Source: Armatimonadota bacterium
GTDB taxonomy: Bacteria > Armatimonadota > Armatimonadia > Armatimonadales > Armatimonadaceae
Length of the DNA stretch: 5,409 nucleotides
Reading direction: 5' to 3'
NCBI GenBank assembly: GCA_014381035.1
Contig: JACMIS010000250.1
Coordinates: forward strand, 1 to 5,409
Made by a program: the position numbers and the translations under genes. Each line of letters starts with the position of its first letter. The first letter of the stretch is position 1. This document shows positions 1 to 5,409 of the stretch, one piece after another. Under the pieces are notes generated by a model that saw only the letters and a program-made list of their open reading frames with translations, had not been told where the DNA came from and searched no databases.

Positions 1-477
1 GTTTCGCAGACCGACCCGGCGTTTACCAGTGCGGCGTTCGGGCTGGCGCGGTGTCGGGCGCAGGGGAAAGATCGGGCCGGGGCGGTCGCCGCCTATCAAC
101 GAATTCCTGCGACTTCGCGGCGATACACGCTGGCGCAAGTCGCCCTCGCGCGGGTGCTGGTGCGCTCCGAACTCGCCCCGCCCGGCGCGACGGAGTTGGA
201 GCAAGCGTCGGCAACGGTACAGGCACTTTCGATGGAAGGGTACGCGCTCCACCAACTGTCCGTGGAACTGTTCCGCGCCGCGATCCGGCAGGTGGAAGCG
301 AAAGCGATCCCCGCCGGTGCCGCAAATCAGGTTCTGGGTCAGCCGCTGGAAACGAACGCGCTGCGCTTCGCGGTAGAGCGAGAACTACGCGCCTGCGCCC
401 GCTACGCGAAGTCCCGCGACGAGCAGATCACGTTGATCGATGCGGCGAACAAGGAACGACCACGGACACTGTTCTAG
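1..477 (+). CDS. PknG-like serine/threonine kinase, C-terminal helical (TPR) part, 5' truncated
   Basis: The frame is open from base 1 to the TAG at 475-477, giving 158 residues of a protein whose start lies outside the window. No kinase catalytic motifs are present. What is visible is an Ala/Leu/Arg-rich helical segment: a TPR-like stretch around residues 5-35 (DPAFTSAAFGLARC, then GDRAGAVAAY-like helix pairs), further helices to about 135, and a tail reading ITLIDAANKERPRTLF. From memory, this tail and the preceding helices match the C-terminus of PknG-family kinases (M. tuberculosis PknG ends in a similar DMANKVRP segment). In that family the C-terminal TPR domain follows a rubredoxin-like domain and the kinase, and helps dimerisation and substrate handling. 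Assignment as a kinase is inferred from the tail and from the PP2C, FHA and GlnX-like neighbours. A non-kinase TPR protein is the alternative. It lies 29 bp upstream of the phosphatase gene. Confidence 0.75.
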   Translation, partial: VSQTDPAFTSAAFGLARCRAQGKDRAGAVAAYQRIPATSRRYTLAQVALARVLVRSELAPPGATELEQASATVQALSMEGYALHQLSVELFRAAIRQVEAKAIPAGAANQVLGQPLETNALRFAVERELRACARYAKSRDEQITLIDAANKERPRTLF

Positions 478-506
478 ACCGGAACCTCGAAGAAAACATA
501 AACTTT

Positions 507-1556
507 ATGCCAATAATCTGCCCGAGGTGTGGGACAACAGCCCCCGATGGTGCCGCCTTTTGCGAGCGGGACGGAACCCAACTCCGCGAGACGACGGCGG
601 AAACGCCGATGCCTTCCGCCAGCCTCACCGTGTCCTTACCGGTGCCTACTCCCGCCACCGGTTGCCGGTGCGGGGCGGGACCGGAAGCCCGCGCGGACGG
701 CTACTGCAACTCCTGCGGGCGTAAGTGGGTGGAACCGCGCAAACCGCTCCCGCGCGATCACGTCGAACTGGCACTCTCGCTTTCGTTCGCGGGCGTGACC
801 GACCGGGGGCAACGCCACAGCAAGAATGAGGATGATTTCGCGATCTCCTTCACCGGCGCGGGGGCTGCTGTGCTGGTCGTTTGTGACGGCGTATCGTCGT
901 CGGAAGAAGCGGATCGCGCGTCCGCTATCGCGGCAAAGACGATGTGCGCCCGACTGAGCGAGCCGACCACGGACGGCGAGGGGGCTTTCCGCGAGGCGGT
1001 CGCCGCCGCGAATGTCGCCGTCTGCGCGTTACACAGCAACGCGCCCGGCGCGACTTCCGCGCCGCCGGAAACCACCGTCGTCGCCGCCATCGTCCGGGAA
1101 CGCGCGGCGATCCTCGGCTGGGTCGGCGATAGCCGCGCGTACTGGATCGACAGCTCCGACCCCACCGCCGCGCGACTCCTCAGCCACGACCATTCGTGGC
1201 TGAACGAGGTGGTAGATTCCGGCGAGATGACGGCGGCAGAGGCGGGCAAAAACCGGCTTGCCCACGCGATCACGCGTTGCCTCGGGACGTTCGACGACCC
1301 CAGCACCAGCGAACCGACAATTACGGAGTTTGCTTTCGGCGCGGCGGGCGGCTACCTGCTCCTTTGCTCCGACGGTTTGTGGAACTACGCGGAATCCCCC
1401 GCGCAGATCGCCGCGTTGGTCCACGCCGCGCCGCAGAGCGAGGGGGCGGTCGCCATCGCCCGACATCTCGTCGCTTGGGCGAACGCGCAAGGCGGGCGCG
1501 ACAACATCACGGTGGCATTGCTGGCGGTGCCCGCCGACGATACGGCAACGATTTGA
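507..1556 (+). CDS. PP2C-family protein Ser/Thr phosphatase with two N-terminal zinc ribbons
   Basis: This 349-residue protein should remove phosphate from Ser/Thr in the cytoplasm, opposing the kinase encoded upstream. Two zinc-ribbon motifs come first: C5-x2-C8 with C19 and probably D22, then C53-x-C55 with C67-x2-C70. The PPM/PP2C domain spans about residues 90-345. Its motifs are all recognisable: HSKNEDD (metal-site D109), VVCDGV (D127-G128), GWVGDSRAYW (D208), LLSHDHSW, LLLCSDGLW (D289) and GGRDNITV (D332-N333). The metal-coordinating aspartates therefore look intact. The usual DGMGG segment reads DGVSSSEEAD. The frame stays open upstream to about base 51, but that stretch overlaps the kinase gene. 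The ATG at 507 directly precedes the first ribbon and is the sensible start, although its ribosome site is weak (GAAGAAAA, 489-496). No membrane segment is seen, so this is a soluble enzyme. It is followed 13 bp later by the VWA gene. Confidence 0.93.
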   Translation: MPIICPRCGTTAPDGAAFCERDGTQLRETTAETPMPSASLTVSLPVPTPATGCRCGAGPEARADGYCNSCGRKWVEPRKPLPRDHVELALSLSFAGVTDRGQRHSKNEDDFAISFTGAGAAVLVVCDGVSSSEEADRASAIAAKTMCARLSEPTTDGEGAFREAVAAANVAVCALHSNAPGATSAPPETTVVAAIVRERAAILGWVGDSRAYWIDSSDPTAARLLSHDHSWLNEVVDSGEMTAAEAGKNRLAHAITRCLGTFDDPSTSEPTITEFAFGAAGGYLLLCSDGLWNYAESPAQIAALVHAAPQSEGAVAIARHLVAWANAQGGRDNITVALLAVPADDTATI

Positions 1557-1560
1557 GAAT

Positions 1561-1566
1561 GGAGAA
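1561..1566 (+). promoter_or_regulatory. Shine-Dalgarno site for the VWA gene
   Basis: GGAGAA lies 5 to 6 bases before the ATG at 1570, just after the phosphatase stop codon. It decides this start over the longer open frame, which extends back to 1258 inside the phosphatase gene. Confidence 0.7.
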
Positions 1567-1569
1567 ACA

Positions 1570-2853
1570 ATGAACTTTCAGATAGAAGCGTTTCAGAACC
1601 CCTATTTGCCCGCCGGGACCACGCGGGTAGACGCCGTGCTGACCGTCGCCGCTTCCGGGGACGCGGGCGTGCCGACCGGTGCTTCGAGCGGCGTCGTGGT
1701 CGGGATCATCGTGGACTGCTCCGGTTCGATGCAGGGCGACCGAATCGAGGCGGTGCGCCACGCGACGCGCAAAGCCATTTCCCTCCTCGGCGAGCAGATG
1801 TACTTTTTCGTGGTCCGATTCAGCACCACCGCCGAACTGGTGTATCCGCTCTCCCAGGCGAGCGAGGCGCACAAAGCGCGGGCGGACGCGGCGGTGCGCG
1901 GCATCGCGGCGGGGGGCGGTACCGCGATGTCCACGGGACTCGAACTCGCCCGCGAACAGTTCGCACAGCTTCAGGGCGCGATCAGCCAGGCGTTATTTCT
2001 GACCGACGGCAAGAACGACGGCGCGGACGAAGCGCGGCTCGACGGCGTGTTGAGCCGGTGCGAGGGCGTATTCCAGTGCGAATGTCGCGGCGTCGGCACC
2101 GACTGGCAGCCCGACCAGTTGAAGAAGATCGCGGCGAAACTCCTCGGCGGGGCGGCGATCATCGCCGAACCGGCGGGGATGGAAGCAGATTTCGCGCAGG
2201 CGATCCAGTCCGCGTCCGGGCGCGGCGTCGGCAACGTCCGCTTGCGCCTGTGGACCCCGAAAACCGCACGGGTCGTCGCCGTCAAGCAGATGAGTCCGAC
2301 GATAGAGGTGCTGACGGATCGCGGGACGCCGGTGGACGCGCAGTCCACGGATTATCCGACCGGCGCATGGGGTTCCGAGTCGCGCGATTATTACGTCGCC
2401 GTCGAAATGAACGCGGCGGGCGACATCGGCGACGAGATGCTCGCCGCGCGTCCGTCGCTCGTGTACGACGCGGGCGGGGTGACGCAGGAAATCAAGAACC
2501 CCGCCGCCCGGATTCTCGCCTCCTGGACCGGCGACGAAGCGTTGTCCGCACGCATCAACGCGCAGGTCGCGCACTACACCGGGCAAGCCGAACTGGCGAG
2601 CACGATTCAGGAAGGCCTGGAAGCCCGCGCCAAAGGCGACGTAGAATCCGCGACGCGCCTGCTGGGACGCGCCGCGAAACTCGCCGCCGAATCCGGCAAC
2701 GACGAAACCACCTCCCGCCTGAAAAAAGTCGTGGACATCGTGGACGAACGCGAAGGGACGGTCCGCCTCAAAGGGGCCGTGAAAAAGTCCGACGAGATGG
2801 ACCTGGACCTCGGTTCGACCCGTACCTCCCGCGCCAAACGCCCCGCCCCGTAA
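1570..2853 (+). CDS. VWA-domain protein with intact MIDAS and a Thr-containing C-terminal tail
   Basis: This 427-residue cytoplasmic protein has no signal peptide or membrane segment. A von Willebrand factor A domain spans about residues 40-215. Its metal-ion-dependent adhesion site is complete: D49-C-S51-G-S53 (DCSGSM), T118 in GGGTAMSTGL, and D146 in LFLTDGKND. Residues 220-315 look like a beta-rich domain, and 320-400 are helical (SARINAQVAHYTGQAEL, then an Ala-rich helix pair). The acidic tail ends DLDLGSTRTS followed by basic residues. VWA domains with MIDAS usually bind partner proteins through a divalent metal. From memory, similar VWA proteins with a GST-[RK]-T tail occur in actinobacterial clusters with PP2C and FHA genes. 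A scaffold or phospho-substrate role in this circuit is inference. The start is set by GGAGAA at 1561-1566. The FHA gene follows after 25 bp. Confidence 0.92.
   Translation: MNFQIEAFQNPYLPAGTTRVDAVLTVAASGDAGVPTGASSGVVVGIIVDCSGSMQGDRIEAVRHATRKAISLLGEQMYFFVVRFSTTAELVYPLSQASEAHKARADAAVRGIAAGGGTAMSTGLELAREQFAQLQGAISQALFLTDGKNDGADEARLDGVLSRCEGVFQCECRGVGTDWQPDQLKKIAAKLLGGAAIIAEPAGMEADFAQAIQSASGRGVGNVRLRLWTPKTARVVAVKQMSPTIEVLTDRGTPVDAQSTDYPTGAWGSESRDYYVAVEMNAAGDIGDEMLAARPSLVYDAGGVTQEIKNPAARILASWTGDEALSARINAQVAHYTGQAELASTIQEGLEARAKGDVESATRLLGRAAKLAAESGNDETTSRLKKVVDIVDEREGTVRLKGAVKKSDEMDLDLGSTRTSRAKRPAP
2800..2829 (+). other. Acidic STRT tail of the VWA protein, candidate phosphothreonine site
   Basis: Residues 411-420 of the VWA protein read DLDLGSTRTS, directly after a run of charged residues (KKSDEM) and before a basic end (RAKRPAP). 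The segment is probably disordered and offers T417 and T419 as phosphoacceptors. The next gene encodes an FHA domain, which binds phosphothreonine peptides, and a kinase and a phosphatase precede it. Phosphorylation here is inferred, not shown. Confidence 0.4.
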
Positions 2854-2878
2854 AACCACCCGAAAAGAACACACGTTT

Positions 2879-3625
2879 ATGTCAGCCATCACCTATGATT
2901 GCCCGAATGGGCACCCATCCACCGACCCGGAATACTGTTCCGAGTGCGGCAAGAAACTATCCGCCACATCGGTGAGTGCCCCGGCGGGGGCACCGCCGAA
3001 CAGCACCGCCCTGCCATCAACCACCGGCAACGGCGGCGAGGCGTGTCCCGACTGCGGCACCCCCCGCGCCACGCCCACCGCCGTCTTTTGCGAAGTATGT
3101 CGTTATAACTTCGTCAGTAAGCAGTCATGGACGCCGAACGCTCCGATGACTGCCCCGGCGACTCCTGCCACGGCGACAGCGGCACCGCCGCTCCCGACAC
3201 CCGCCCCCCCACCGCTACCGACCGGTACGCCCCCCGATCTACCGCGCCGGTGGGAAGCCGTCGCCGTGGTAGACCCGGCACTCTATGTCGATCCCGACCC
3301 GGCGAACCCTCTTCCGACGGGAACGCCGGAGCGCGTTTTCCCGCTCGATTTCCCCGAAAACTTGATCGGACGCCGTAGCGAGCGACGGGCGATCTACCCG
3401 GAGATCGACCTGTCCGGCGATTCCGGCGTGTCGTCGCGCCACGCGATCGTGTACCGCGAGGCGGACGGATCGCTGTCCTTCTTAGACGTCGGCTCGACAA
3501 ACGGCTCGCAGGTCAACGGGGCGGAAGTCGCGCCGGGGGTGCGGGTGCCGCTCGCGGACGGCGACCAGATCACCGTCGGTTGCTGGACGCGCATCACGCT
3601 TCGCGCCGCCGGAGGGAAGCCATGA
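2879..3625 (+). CDS. FHA-domain protein with two zinc ribbons and a Pro/Thr-rich linker
   Basis: This 248-residue soluble protein is the likely phosphothreonine reader of the operon. Ribbon one is C8-x3-H12 with C20-x2-C23; ribbon two is C56-x2-C59 with C71-x2-C74. A low-complexity linker rich in Pro, Ala and Thr runs from about residue 84 to 148. The C-terminal FHA domain covers about 160-242 and has the expected landmarks: IGRR (G164, R165), GVSSRHA (S185, R187, H188) and DVGSTNGSQVNG (S206, T207, N208, G209). Phosphopeptide-binding positions therefore appear intact. In mycobacteria the FHA partner of PknG is GarA, which has a short N-terminal phosphorylated segment instead of zinc ribbons; this protein is larger and organised differently, so the name garA is not used. 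The ATG at 2879 has only a weak GA-rich site upstream (GAAAAGAA). Its stop overlaps the start of the membrane gene by four bases (ATGA). Confidence 0.93.
   Translation: MSAITYDCPNGHPSTDPEYCSECGKKLSATSVSAPAGAPPNSTALPSTTGNGGEACPDCGTPRATPTAVFCEVCRYNFVSKQSWTPNAPMTAPATPATATAAPPLPTPAPPPLPTGTPPDLPRRWEAVAVVDPALYVDPDPANPLPTGTPERVFPLDFPENLIGRRSERRAIYPEIDLSGDSGVSSRHAIVYREADGSLSFLDVGSTNGSQVNGAEVAPGVRVPLADGDQITVGCWTRITLRAAGGKP
3611..3616 (+). promoter_or_regulatory. Shine-Dalgarno site for the GlnX-like gene
   Basis: GGAGGG, the strongest ribosome site in the window, lies inside the last codons of the FHA gene about six bases before the ATG at 3622. It favours that start over the in-frame ATG at 3580, 14 codons earlier, and fits translational coupling through the ATGA overlap. 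Confidence 0.75.
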
Positions 3626-5001
3626 GTGCCCGTTCTGCCGCGACCCCAGCAGACGCCGACCGCTGGAAGACGCCCCGCCTGTTGCAAATAACCATCGGCG
3701 CGATATTCCTCGCGGCGGTCCTGTTCTTCTGGGCGTCCCTTGCGGGCGTCCGCGCCATGCGGAACCGGGTCCAGAGCATCGGCAAAGATTCCGTGCCCAG
3801 TATCCTCGCCGCGCAACGGCTCAAGGTCAGCCTCGCCGACCTCGATGCGAACGTCGTCAACGAGTTGATCGTCGCGCCGGGCAAAAGCCCCGCCTCCATC
3901 AAAGGTTATGTCACACGGCGGCAGGAAATCACGGACAGCCTGATCCGCGCGGCGGAAAATATCACGTACGGCGACCTGGAACGAAAACCGATCACCGACC
4001 TGACGAACGCGCTTTCGGCGTACGAACGGCTCGCGATCAAGGCGCGGACGCTCCACCAGCGCGGCGAGGAGCGCGGCGCGACGGCGACGTACCGGGATGC
4101 ACTCGCGCAGCTTCATGGCGCGCTCTATCCGGCATCGGAACTGCTGGCGAAGGCCAACACAGATGCCCTGCTGCGTCAGGAAAAAGTGATCGGCACGAAC
4201 ACGGCCATCGCGGCGGGACTTACCCTGCTGACGGGCGTACTACTCCTGGGGGTCCTGGTAGAATCGCAGGTGCTTCTTTTCCGGCGCACGAACCGTCTAT
4301 TTAACCCTGCGCTACTGGCAGCGACGACTGTCGCGGTCGTGTCGCTCGGGCTTCTTCTGCGGTCGTTCGCGGTGGCGCAAGAGCAGGTACGTATCGCCCG
4401 CGACGACGCCTTCGTCTCGCTTTCCGCGCTGTGGCAGGCACGGGCAACCGCCTATGACGCGAACTCGGACGAAAGTCGCTGGTTGTATGACCGCGACCGC
4501 CGTCCGGAACTGGAGAAGTCGTTTATGGACAAAACGGCGCTGCTCCTGAAACTTCCCGCCGGGCAGTCCTACGCCGCCATGACACAGGCGACGGCGAACC
4601 CAGCCGCCTTGCCAGCCGACACGAGCGGCTATCTCGCGCAGGAACTCGGCAATATTACGTTCCCCGGTGAGCGCGAAGTCGCGGAGGGGACGGTCCGTGC
4701 CTGGGGCGTTTACTACGCCGCCGACGAAAAGATCCGCGCCCTGGAAAACAACGGTCAGCATGAGGAAGCGGTGCGATTTTGCATCAGCATGGCACCCGGC
4801 GATTCGAACTGGGCATATGCGCAGTACGATCAGGCGCTGGATAAGACAATCGAGATCAATCAAAAGGCGTTCGATGCAGCAATCGAGCGCGGGTTTGGCG
4901 CAGTGCGCGGCTACGACGTCGGACTTCCGGTGGCGGTATTACTCGTCGGCGGACTGGCGTTCGCAGGCATCCGCCCCCGCCTGCGCGAGTACGACGTATG
5001 A
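3622..5001 (+). CDS. GlnX-like membrane sensor with four membrane helices and two extracytoplasmic domains
   Basis: The 459-residue product has four hydrophobic segments, at about residues 19-41, 192-216, 228-248 and 433-449. A short Arg-containing loop (FRRTNRL) joins the second and third. With the N-terminus and the C-terminal RPRLREYDV end inside, residues 42-191 and 249-432 form two large outer domains that look almost wholly helical. No kinase, HAMP, methyl-accepting or cyclase domain follows, so any signal must pass to a separate partner. In mycobacteria, a membrane protein of this layout (GlnX) and a binding protein (GlnH) are encoded next to pknG and act in amino-acid sensing through the kinase. 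The similarity here rests on architecture, the short inside tail and gene context, not on an alignment. Each half begins with a comparable helix, suggesting internal duplication. It is translationally coupled to the FHA gene, and another ATG (4998) overlaps its stop. Confidence 0.8.
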   Translation: MSARSAATPADADRWKTPRLLQITIGAIFLAAVLFFWASLAGVRAMRNRVQSIGKDSVPSILAAQRLKVSLADLDANVVNELIVAPGKSPASIKGYVTRRQEITDSLIRAAENITYGDLERKPITDLTNALSAYERLAIKARTLHQRGEERGATATYRDALAQLHGALYPASELLAKANTDALLRQEKVIGTNTAIAAGLTLLTGVLLLGVLVESQVLLFRRTNRLFNPALLAATTVAVVSLGLLLRSFAVAQEQVRIARDDAFVSLSALWQARATAYDANSDESRWLYDRDRRPELEKSFMDKTALLLKLPAGQSYAAMTQATANPAALPADTSGYLAQELGNITFPGEREVAEGTVRAWGVYYAADEKIRALENNGQHEEAVRFCISMAPGDSNWAYAQYDQALDKTIEINQKAFDAAIERGFGAVRGYDVGLPVAVLLVGGLAFAGIRPRLREYDV

Positions 5002-5351: not shown

Positions 5352-5409
5352 TCACAGTGTCCAGAACTGAACGAGACCGTGCTTGTCGGCGGTGGCGAGC
5401 GTGGCTCCA
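5352..5409 (-). CDS. C-terminal end of a probable WD40-repeat protein, truncated by the window edge
   Basis: On the minus strand, codons from 5408 down to the TGA at 5352-5354 read GATLATADKHGLVQFWTL and then stop. The pattern LATA-D-x-G-x-V-x-x-W is the hallmark of the last strands of a WD40 blade, where Asp and Trp occupy the usual places. Ending right after a blade is typical of beta-propeller proteins. Only 18 residues are visible, so the family call is tentative and nothing can be said about the rest. The gene converges on the operon. Confidence 0.5.
   Translation of the reverse strand, partial: GATLATADKHGLVQFWTL

What the first reader, a model, noticed from the sequence alone, without database searches (positions are those of the whole stretch)
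1..5001. Kinase, phosphatase, VWA scaffold, FHA reader and membrane sensor in one tight operon
The five genes supply a writer, eraser, reader, candidate scaffold and input sensor for Thr phosphorylation, with gaps of 29, 13 and 25 bp and one 4-bp overlap. The mycobacterial pknG-glnX-glnH locus lacks the linked phosphatase, VWA protein and FHA reader. The VWA and zinc-ribbon FHA proteins may be uncharacterised parts of an amino-acid-responsive circuit. That the kinase is PknG-like rests on its C-terminal tail only.
Basis: partly seen in the sequence, partly recalled or inferred. Interest (0 to 1): 0.7.

Follow-up and report, generated by a model that had tools for sequence, protein, structure and literature searches.

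The report
PknG kinase switch with Arn-like readout
This DNA carries most of a gene set, found again in the same order in several bacterial phyla, that looks like a complete protein-phosphorylation switch: a membrane sensor, a PknG-type kinase, a phosphatase, a probable target protein and its reader; the well-known PknG pathway of mycobacteria appears to be a shorter version of it.

Summary
The window carries, packed on one strand, the end of a PknG (TPR domain, 1.2e-29), a zinc-ribbon PP2C, a VWA protein, a zinc-ribbon FHA protein and a GlnX-family sensor. Of 80 GlnX-anchored loci (best 80 of 145), 37 carry these five plus a sixth, unnamed ~400-aa helical protein, F0, presumably beyond the window's 5' edge. 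In 194 cyanobacterial genomes PknG, GlnX and F0 occur in the same 5. Streptomyces/Kitasatospora genomes join the set to the textbook locus: GlnX-GlnH-F0-PknG-PP2C-VWA-FHA; other actinobacterial genomes keep only GlnX-GlnH-PknG. No GlnH relative was found in the 80 loci. The VWA protein matches solved 4FX5 over its length (1.4e-90); VWA and FHA profiles also hit the archaeal ArnB/ArnA complex 8S05. Best reading: GlnX gates PknG, which phosphorylates an invariant Thr-x-Thr tail of the VWA protein; the FHA protein reads it and PP2C resets it. Anatomy shown; phosphorylation, binding and ligand inferred. New variant of a known kind.

The parts
1..477 (+). 3' part of a pknG-type Ser/Thr kinase gene (C-terminal 158 residues, PknG TPR domain); 5' part beyond the contig edge
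   Evidence: PF16918 1.2e-29, profile 187-340/340; 49% identical to residues 585-742 of the PknG of L029
507..1556 (+). PP2C-type Ser/Thr phosphatase with two N-terminal zinc-ribbon-like motifs
   Evidence: PP2C_2 7.5e-16, Stp1-type NF033484 5.9e-40, below its cut-off; D127, G128, D208, D289, D332, N333 in 45 of 45; 4th ligand position of the first ribbon is Asp in the window, Cys in 42 of 45
1570..2853 (+). VWA protein, same family as solved 4FX5
   Evidence: VWA_3 4.1e-13, VWA_3_C 9e-20; 4fx5_A 1.4e-90 over residues 3-424; MIDAS D49, S51, S53, T118, D146 in 47 of 47
2803..2832 (+). C-terminal tail L412-R421 of the VWA protein, proposed phospho-Thr site (T417, T419)
   Evidence: L412, T417, T419, R421 identical in 47 of 47; tail pattern in 68 of 71 ORFs of a wider set; pattern absent in 7 control paralogues
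2879..3625 (+). reader protein: two N-terminal zinc ribbons, variable linker, C-terminal FHA domain
   Evidence: FHA 2.2e-11; G164, R165, D181, N208, G209 in 53 of 53, S185 and H188 in 52 of 53
3622..5001 (+). GlnX-family membrane sensor; two periplasmic helical domains inferred
   Evidence: NF058618 275 bits, cut-off 250; AlphaFold model pLDDT 91.9, pTM 0.86
4978..4992 (+). C-terminal R-x-x-E-Y tail (R453-Y457) of GlnX, candidate cytoplasmic docking tail
   Evidence: R453, E456, Y457 invariant in 33 of 33 aligned; R-x-x-E-[YF] in 106 of 106 ORFs that reach the profile end unfused, and in 114 of 120 listed database proteins; altered in the 3 kinase-GlnX fusions among them

Best explanation
The window is one copy, cut at its 5' end, of a conserved six-gene phospho-signalling module: F0 (helical protein, presumably beyond the contig edge), PknG, PP2C, VWA, FHA, GlnX. 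Proposed mechanism: (1) the GlnX four-helix periplasmic domains bind a small ligand directly, or an unlinked partner, since no linked GlnH is seen; (2) the short cytoplasmic surface of GlnX, including its invariant C-terminal R-x-x-E-Y/F tail, contacts the TPR domain of soluble PknG and gates it; (3) PknG phosphorylates Thr residues in the C-terminal tail of the VWA protein (T417, T419); (4) the FHA protein is held loosely to the VWA protein by its zinc ribbons and locks on through its FHA domain once the tail is phosphorylated, as ArnA does on ArnB in Sulfolobus; (5) the linked PP2C resets the switch; (6) F0 is a helical adapter of the VWA arm. Downstream output unknown. Shown: gene order, families, conserved catalytic and binding residues, co-occurrence, homology to the ArnA/ArnB pair. 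Inferred: every phosphorylation and binding step, the ligand, and the role of F0.
For: Families and order. Six genes in 37 of 80 loci: 27 F0-PknG-PP2C-VWA-FHA-GlnX, 6 VWA-FHA-GlnX-F0-PknG-PP2C, 2 PP2C-VWA-FHA-GlnX-F0-PknG, 2 with F0 inverted behind GlnX. Cyanobacteria: PknG, GlnX and F0 in the same 5 of 194, full-length VWA in those 5. Actinomycetota: PknG in 14 of 198; VWA in 9 and F0 in the same 9, all inside the 14. Distance matrices of the six families correlate at r 0.905-0.969 over 34 loci. PP2C, MIDAS and FHA residues conserved. Invariant VWA tail. VWA profile hits ArnB chain 8s05_A 2.3e-14, FHA profile hits ArnA chains 8s05_C 7.1e-7 and 5a8i 1.2e-6. ArnA's zinc finger docks unphosphorylated ArnB and its FHA domain binds the phosphorylated C-terminal domain (PMC12852372: abstract, passages, discussion; PMC6509490: abstract, passages). 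Parts of the GlnX model resemble chemoreceptor ligand domains (8bsa with D-Arg, TMt 0.73-0.75, prob 1.00; 6its with citrate, TMt 0.75). A GlnX-PknG TPR contact is the published proposal (PMC8546545, PMC6069109; passages).
Against: No phosphorylation or interaction was tested. ArnB phosphosites lie in its helical bundle, and no single one is essential (PMC12852372); the same paper says the ArnB blueprint elsewhere is mostly not part of such phospho-switches. The ArnB match of the VWA profile covers the VWA domain only, residues 43-222. The FHA domain is closer to GarA/OdhI (5.5e-10, 1.7e-9) than to ArnA. The tail is well but not uniquely conserved: 13-residue window 409-421 ranks 52nd of 415; 3 of 71 wider VWA ORFs deviate from the pattern, L125 with a wholly different end. 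For GlnX no Foldseek match reaches E 0.001 and the first rows by E-value are mostly MATE transporters at TM below 0.25. Species history was not removed from the distance correlations. GlnX stands alone in 21 of 80 loci; of 27 genomes behind loci, G001 and G010 gave no PknG match and G008 and G015 only weak partial ones.
Confidence: 0.5

Rival explanations
1. The FHA protein itself, as OdhI/GarA, is the PknG substrate and metabolic effector; the VWA protein is only a scaffold of the complex.
For: PknG's known substrate in actinobacteria is an FHA protein (PMC9769921, PMC8546545 passages); GarA and OdhI are among the best solved matches of the FHA profile, 5.5e-10 and 1.7e-9.
Against: No Thr column N-terminal of the FHA domain is conserved in 90% or more of the 53 FHA proteins: that part is zinc ribbons plus a variable linker. 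The OdhI equivalog model gives 22.6 bits against a cut-off of 200.
Confidence: 0.2
2. It is a TerY-P-like stress, metal or defence module (VWA + PP2C + kinase with zinc ribbons) that has recruited GlnX.
For: TerY-P consists of a TerY-like VWA, PP2C and a kinase fused to a zinc ribbon (PMC11090510 passages). A family-F20 gene precedes VWA in four of the six loci with the rotated order (L044, L052, L053, L054); its L053 member is TelA.
Against: The kinase C-terminus is TPR, not a zinc ribbon; Cys motifs sit at the N-termini of PP2C, FHA and, by eye, of the PknG relatives. At E<=0.001 PADLOC names neither the VWA, FHA, GlnX nor F0 protein; PP2C matches one candidate model (PDC-M21C, 2.3e-9) and the L029 kinase many kinase models, which I take as generic enzyme-domain matches.
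Confidence: 0.13
3. The genes are co-inherited neighbours with separate duties; the operon reflects co-expression only.
For: In 21 of 80 loci GlnX stands alone and in 4 only PknG-GlnX are linked; three Chamaesiphon PknG stretches show none of the other families in the bases held (L117, L118, L127).
Against: F0 and VWA occur in the same 9 of 198 Actinomycetota, all with PknG; PknG, GlnX and F0 in the same 5 of 194 cyanobacteria; order kept across phyla although the set is rare within those sampled.
Confidence: 0.12

Closest known systems
GlnX-GlnH-PknG pathway of Actinobacteria (PMC6069109, PMC8546545, PMC9769921; passages read)
   Same: PknG with TPR end, GlnX-family sensor, genes linked; both keep the GlnX R-x-x-E-Y/F tail
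   Different: no GlnH relative found in the 80 GlnX-anchored loci; PP2C, VWA, FHA and F0 added; Streptomyces/Kitasatospora loci carry both sets together
Archaeal ArnA-ArnB switch with kinase ArnC and phosphatase PP2A (PMC6509490, PMC12852372)
   Same: zinc-finger FHA protein plus three-domain VWA protein, kinase with TPR-like stretch, Ser/Thr phosphatase
   Different: kinase is PknG, phosphatase is PP2C; candidate Thr motif sits in a C-terminal tail; sensor, kinase and phosphatase are in one operon; F0 added; nutrient input and motility output not shown here
4FX5, VWA protein of Catenulispora acidiphila (caci_2163 in PMC6509490)
   Same: same family over whole length, with the Thr-x-Thr tail
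   Different: no function given in the passages read; its own gene neighbourhood was not looked up
TerY-P triad (Anantharaman 2012, seen only as cited in PMC11090510)
   Same: VWA + PP2C + Ser/Thr kinase with zinc ribbons
   Different: PknG kinase with TPR end, GlnX sensor, FHA protein, larger VWA protein

Membership tests
PknG | PknG-type TPR domain | tested here: met
   PF16918 103.6 bits, cut-off 27
PknG | rubredoxin and kinase domains | not testable with these tools
   the 5' part is missing from the window; met in the three relatives scanned (L029, L054, L014) and in L050
GlnX family (NF058618) | score over curated cut-off | tested here: met
   275.4 bits, cut-off 250
PknG-activating GlnX equivalog (NF041460) | score over curated cut-off | tested here: not met
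   38 bits, cut-off 780
GlnX-GlnH-PknG operon | linked solute-binding protein GlnH | tested here: not met
   none among the window's genes; phmmer with one Streptomyces GlnH finds none at E<=1e-10 in the 80 loci. Limits: single query, several loci cut by contig ends, and the region upstream of the window's PknG is unseen
ArnB-type VWA | VWA with intact MIDAS + beta-sandwich + C-terminal helices | tested here: met
   whole-length match to 4fx5_A, which PMC6509490 describes as having this tripartite fold; MIDAS 47 of 47
ArnB-type VWA | C-terminal Thr phosphorylated by the partner kinase | not testable with these tools
   T417 and T419 conserved 47 of 47; phosphorylation unknown
ArnA-type reader | N-terminal zinc finger plus phospho-binding FHA | tested here: met
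   C8, H12, C20, C23, C56, C59, C71, C74 each in 52 of 53; R165 53, S185 52, N208 53 of 53; profile hits 8s05_C and 5a8i
OdhI/GarA | equivalog score and N-terminal phosphosite | tested here: not met
   NF041660 22.6 bits, cut-off 200; no conserved Thr N-terminal of the FHA domain
TerY-P triad | kinase with C-terminal zinc ribbon | tested here: not met
   C-terminus is PknG TPR
TerY-P triad | TerY-like VWA | tested here: inconclusive
   hits VWA_3 and VWA_3_C, no TerY-named model listed; TerY itself was not compared

The most novel reading that the evidence does not exclude
Bacteria have an operon-encoded counterpart of the archaeal ArnA-ArnB phospho-switch, driven by PknG and a GlnX receptor that senses without GlnH; the textbook mycobacterial PknG pathway is a stripped descendant that lost the VWA target, FHA reader, phosphatase and the unnamed helical protein F0.
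Probability: 0.42. Interest if true: 0.78.

Novelty: new variant of a known kind. Interest (0 to 1): 0.62.

Why it matters
How PknG is switched and what else it phosphorylates are open questions; PMC8546545 (passages) calls it mostly restricted to Actinobacteria, and the pathway is built there from GlnH, GlnX and an FHA substrate. If the reading is right, PknG belongs to a wider module with its own target, reader and phosphatase in cis, so the whole cascade can be rebuilt from one cloned locus of a harmless cyanobacterium or Streptomyces. It would also give the 4FX5 family a function, tie a bacterial kinase pathway to an archaeal nutrient switch, and put a name to a new protein family (F0).

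Tried and rejected
Viral contigs: no relative of GlnX with the single-protein query. Plasmids: no DNA match to the window; the VWA protein at E<=1e-40 in one record, an 11.85-Mb Nonomuraea sequence labelled plasmid, without annotation in that stretch. No whole genome is held for the window, so its own neighbourhood could not be read.

GlnX tail as PknG docking site: the tail is also kept where GlnX stands alone, so it does not depend on a neighbouring PknG; 23 of the 27 genomes examined have a PknG_TPR match at E<1e-38, two (G001, G010) none, two (G008, G015) only weak partial ones. Besides the three kinase fusions, P0030, P0034 and P0044 of the 120 listed proteins lack the exact pattern; only three fusions, likely related, were seen, among the best 120 of 180 hits.

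Defence role: PADLOC gave one candidate model for PP2C and many kinase models for the L029 kinase, none for the other proteins. VWA_3_C rang in 0 of 14 control genomes and in G003 but not G001.

Armatimonadota: GlnX over the cut-off in 2 of 151 genomes (30 of 151 at E<=0.001), PknG at E<=1e-20 in 1 of 151; the second GlnX genome (G001) is a MAG whose contig stops inside FHA, so absence of PknG there is uncertain.
Full report
What is there. Five ORFs lie on the + strand at 1-477 (open at the 5' end), 507-1556, 1570-2853, 2879-3625 and 3622-5001, with gaps of 29, 13 and 25 bp and one 4-bp overlap. They are the end of a PknG (PF16918, 1.2e-29), a PP2C phosphatase with N-terminal zinc-ribbon motifs, a VWA protein (VWA_3, VWA_3_C), a zinc-ribbon FHA protein and a 4HB sensor over the cut-off of the GlnX family NF058618 but far below the PknG-activating GlnX equivalog. 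The nearest named GlnX relatives (P0002, P0004, P0010) carry Armatimonadota-type labels; P0002 and P0010 also carry Fibrella and Cytophagales labels from another source. The nearest complete locus that I read, L029, has identities of 49, 44, 60, 52 and 38% to the five proteins; its kinase has rubredoxin, kinase and TPR domains and aligns to solved PknG 2pzi at 3.8e-127.

Survey from the GlnX side. A scan of genome contigs with an alignment of 33 GlnX proteins gave 145 relatives; only the best 80 were kept. I called ORFs and searched them with profiles grown from the window's proteins. Order table: 27 loci F0-PknG-PP2C-VWA-FHA-GlnX (one with GlnX split), 6 VWA-FHA-GlnX-F0-PknG-PP2C, 2 PP2C-VWA-FHA-GlnX-F0-PknG, 2 with F0 on the other strand behind GlnX: 37 of 80 with all six. 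By record title, with class membership partly from my own knowledge, these include Cyanobacteria, Acidobacteriota, a Chthonomonas (Armatimonadota) MAG, an Isosphaeraceae (Planctomycetota) MAG, Actinomycetota, Burkholderiales, and MAGs labelled Clostridium and Sericytochromatia. Against simple linkage: 21 loci with GlnX alone, 1 with GlnX in two pieces alone, 4 with PknG-GlnX only; the other 17 carry part of the set, several at contig ends. F0 is a family of about 400 residues (39 loci) with no Pfam or NCBIfam match beyond weak coiled-coil-like hits, predicted nearly all-helical with mean pLDDT 90.

Survey from the genome side. In 194 cyanobacterial genomes GlnX (E<=1e-20) is in 5, PknG_TPR (E<=1e-20) in the same 5, F0 (E<=1e-6) in the same 5; the VWA profile at E<=1e-30 is in 11, of which those 5 match full length and 6 stop near residue 250. 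The chance of two fixed sets of 5 being equal is 4.6e-10, or 1.8e-8 leaving out the centre genome, which was chosen for having the locus; relatedness among the five was not considered. In 198 Actinomycetota PknG_TPR (E<=1e-20) is in 14, VWA (E<=1e-80) in 9 and F0 (E<=1e-10) in the same 9, all within the 14. In 151 Armatimonadota GlnX passes the cut-off in 2, PknG (E<=1e-20) is in 1. So the module is rare and nearly all-or-none inside the phyla sampled yet present in many, which suggests transfer as a unit; distance matrices of the six families over 34 loci correlate at 0.905-0.969, none of 500 permutations reaching the value, but species history was not removed.

Link to the textbook locus. 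Around the strongest PknG of six Streptomyces or Kitasatospora genomes (G011-G014, G016, G017) the order is GlnX-[gap]-F0-PknG-PP2C-VWA-FHA in 6 of 6, and the gap holds GlnH in all six (family match for one); Actinocrispum L116 has the same seven genes. Of the 14 PknG genomes, I read the loci of the 13 besides G011 (14 stretches): seven show the seven-gene run on one strand, and G558 has the F0-PknG-PP2C-VWA-FHA block with GlnX-GlnH facing it; four (G407, G443, G465, G519) show only GlnX-GlnH-PknG, and G419 has one such locus and a second PknG with no partner recognised. A GlnH relative was found in 0 of the 80 GlnX-anchored loci (one Streptomyces GlnH as phmmer query, E<=1e-10, some loci cut short). 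I read this as two parts, sensor-kinase and VWA arm, joined in one ancestral locus, with the VWA arm missing from mycobacterial-type genomes and GlnH missing from the window type. The direction of change (loss or gain) was not tested with trees.

How the VWA and FHA proteins may work. The VWA protein matches 4FX5 over its length (1.4e-90; 3.7e-140 with the profile). PMC6509490 (abstract and passages) describes 4FX5 as having the same three-domain fold as archaeal vWA2, the paralogue of ArnB, and reports ArnB phosphopeptides, two of them ending in ETTRR. PMC12852372 (abstract, passages, discussion) gives the ArnA-ArnB co-crystal 8S05: ArnA's zinc finger holds unphosphorylated ArnB, ArnA's FHA domain binds the phosphorylated C-terminal domain; kinase ArnC has a TPR-like stretch; the switch follows nutrients; no single phospho-Thr is essential; and the authors think the ArnB architecture elsewhere is mostly not used this way. 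By sequence, the VWA profile hits ArnB 8s05_A (2.3e-14, VWA domain only), and the FHA profile hits ArnA 8s05_C (7.1e-7) and 5a8i (1.2e-6), after GarA and OdhI among others. In the window's family the last residues form a motif L-[ED]-x-x-[SG]-T-x-T-x-R: L412, T417, T419, R421 in 47 of 47 (set = window plus loci with a VWA ORF of at least 380 aa), and the motif (R or K last) in 68 of 71 ORFs of a wider set that includes a few re-fetched copies. Seven paralogues of similar length from six cyanobacteria without a PknG match lack it; their ends are Thr/Lys/Arg-rich too but different. Conservation fades right after R421. The likeness to the ArnB phosphopeptides is by eye.

Other conserved features. 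PP2C metal residues 45 of 45, MIDAS 47 of 47, FHA core residues 51-53 of 53 (one FHA entry, on the other strand of L022, is probably not part of a module). The PknG N-termini printed mostly show Cys motifs like zinc ribbons (by eye), as do PP2C and FHA. GlnX: model of high confidence; four-helix parts match chemoreceptor ligand domains, among them one with D-Arg and one with citrate, at TMt about 0.75 but E above 0.3, behind MATE transporters that align poorly. Its C-terminus R-x-x-E-[YF] is kept in 106 of 106 ORFs that reach the profile end unfused (110 found; 3 cut short, 1 fused; a few re-fetched copies) and in 114 of 120 listed proteins; it is altered in three GlnX proteins fused behind a kinase (P0089, P0101, P0118). 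In a Nitrospirae MAG, GlnX is fused to a SpoIIE-type phosphatase (L047).

Literature. The ten searches of the held library and passages of PMC9769921, PMC8546545, PMC6069109, PMC11032199, PMC7159879, PMC1262709 and PMC11090510 showed me no description of the PknG-PP2C-VWA-FHA-GlnX set nor of a PknG-Arn link; PMC6069109 reports the GlnX-GlnH-PknG operon as conserved in Actinomycetales, PMC8546545 notes PknG relatives in Ktedonobacter and Calothrix. Only listings and passages were seen, and most subscription papers are not in the library, so this is not proof of absence.

Verdict. A real, conserved system; a new variant of a known kind (PknG/GlnX signalling joined to an Arn-type VWA-FHA readout). 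Architecture near certain; mechanism about even odds.

Noticed in passing
window 5352-5408, - strand: Convergent frame end reading GATLATADKHGLVQFWTL*, which looks like the last WD40-type repeat of a neighbouring gene (recognised from memory); GlnX would then be the last gene of the operon.
   Followed up: partly
L047:9941-12109: GlnX domain fused to a SpoIIE-type PP2C phosphatase in a Nitrospirae MAG.
   Followed up: partly
P0089, P0101, P0118: Ser/Thr kinase fused in front of a GlnX-type membrane domain, about 775 residues, no PknG TPR domain listed.
   Followed up: partly
L044, L052, L053, L054 upstream of VWA: Family-F20 gene precedes VWA; the L053 member is TelA (Pfam 9.3e-28).
   Followed up: no
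L026 and L028 upstream of F0: F27 (PspA/IM30-like in L026) and F22 (AAA ATPase in L028) genes precede the module in two Acidobacteriia MAGs.
   Followed up: no
window PP2C residue 22 (codon at 570-572): Fourth ligand of the first zinc ribbon is Asp instead of Cys (Cys in 42 of 45).
   Followed up: partly
G024 (Kutzneria genome): L060, L124, L125: One genome holds three PknG loci of different type: window-type six genes, GlnX-GlnH-PknG, and a divergent F0-PknG-VWA-GlnX set.
   Followed up: partly
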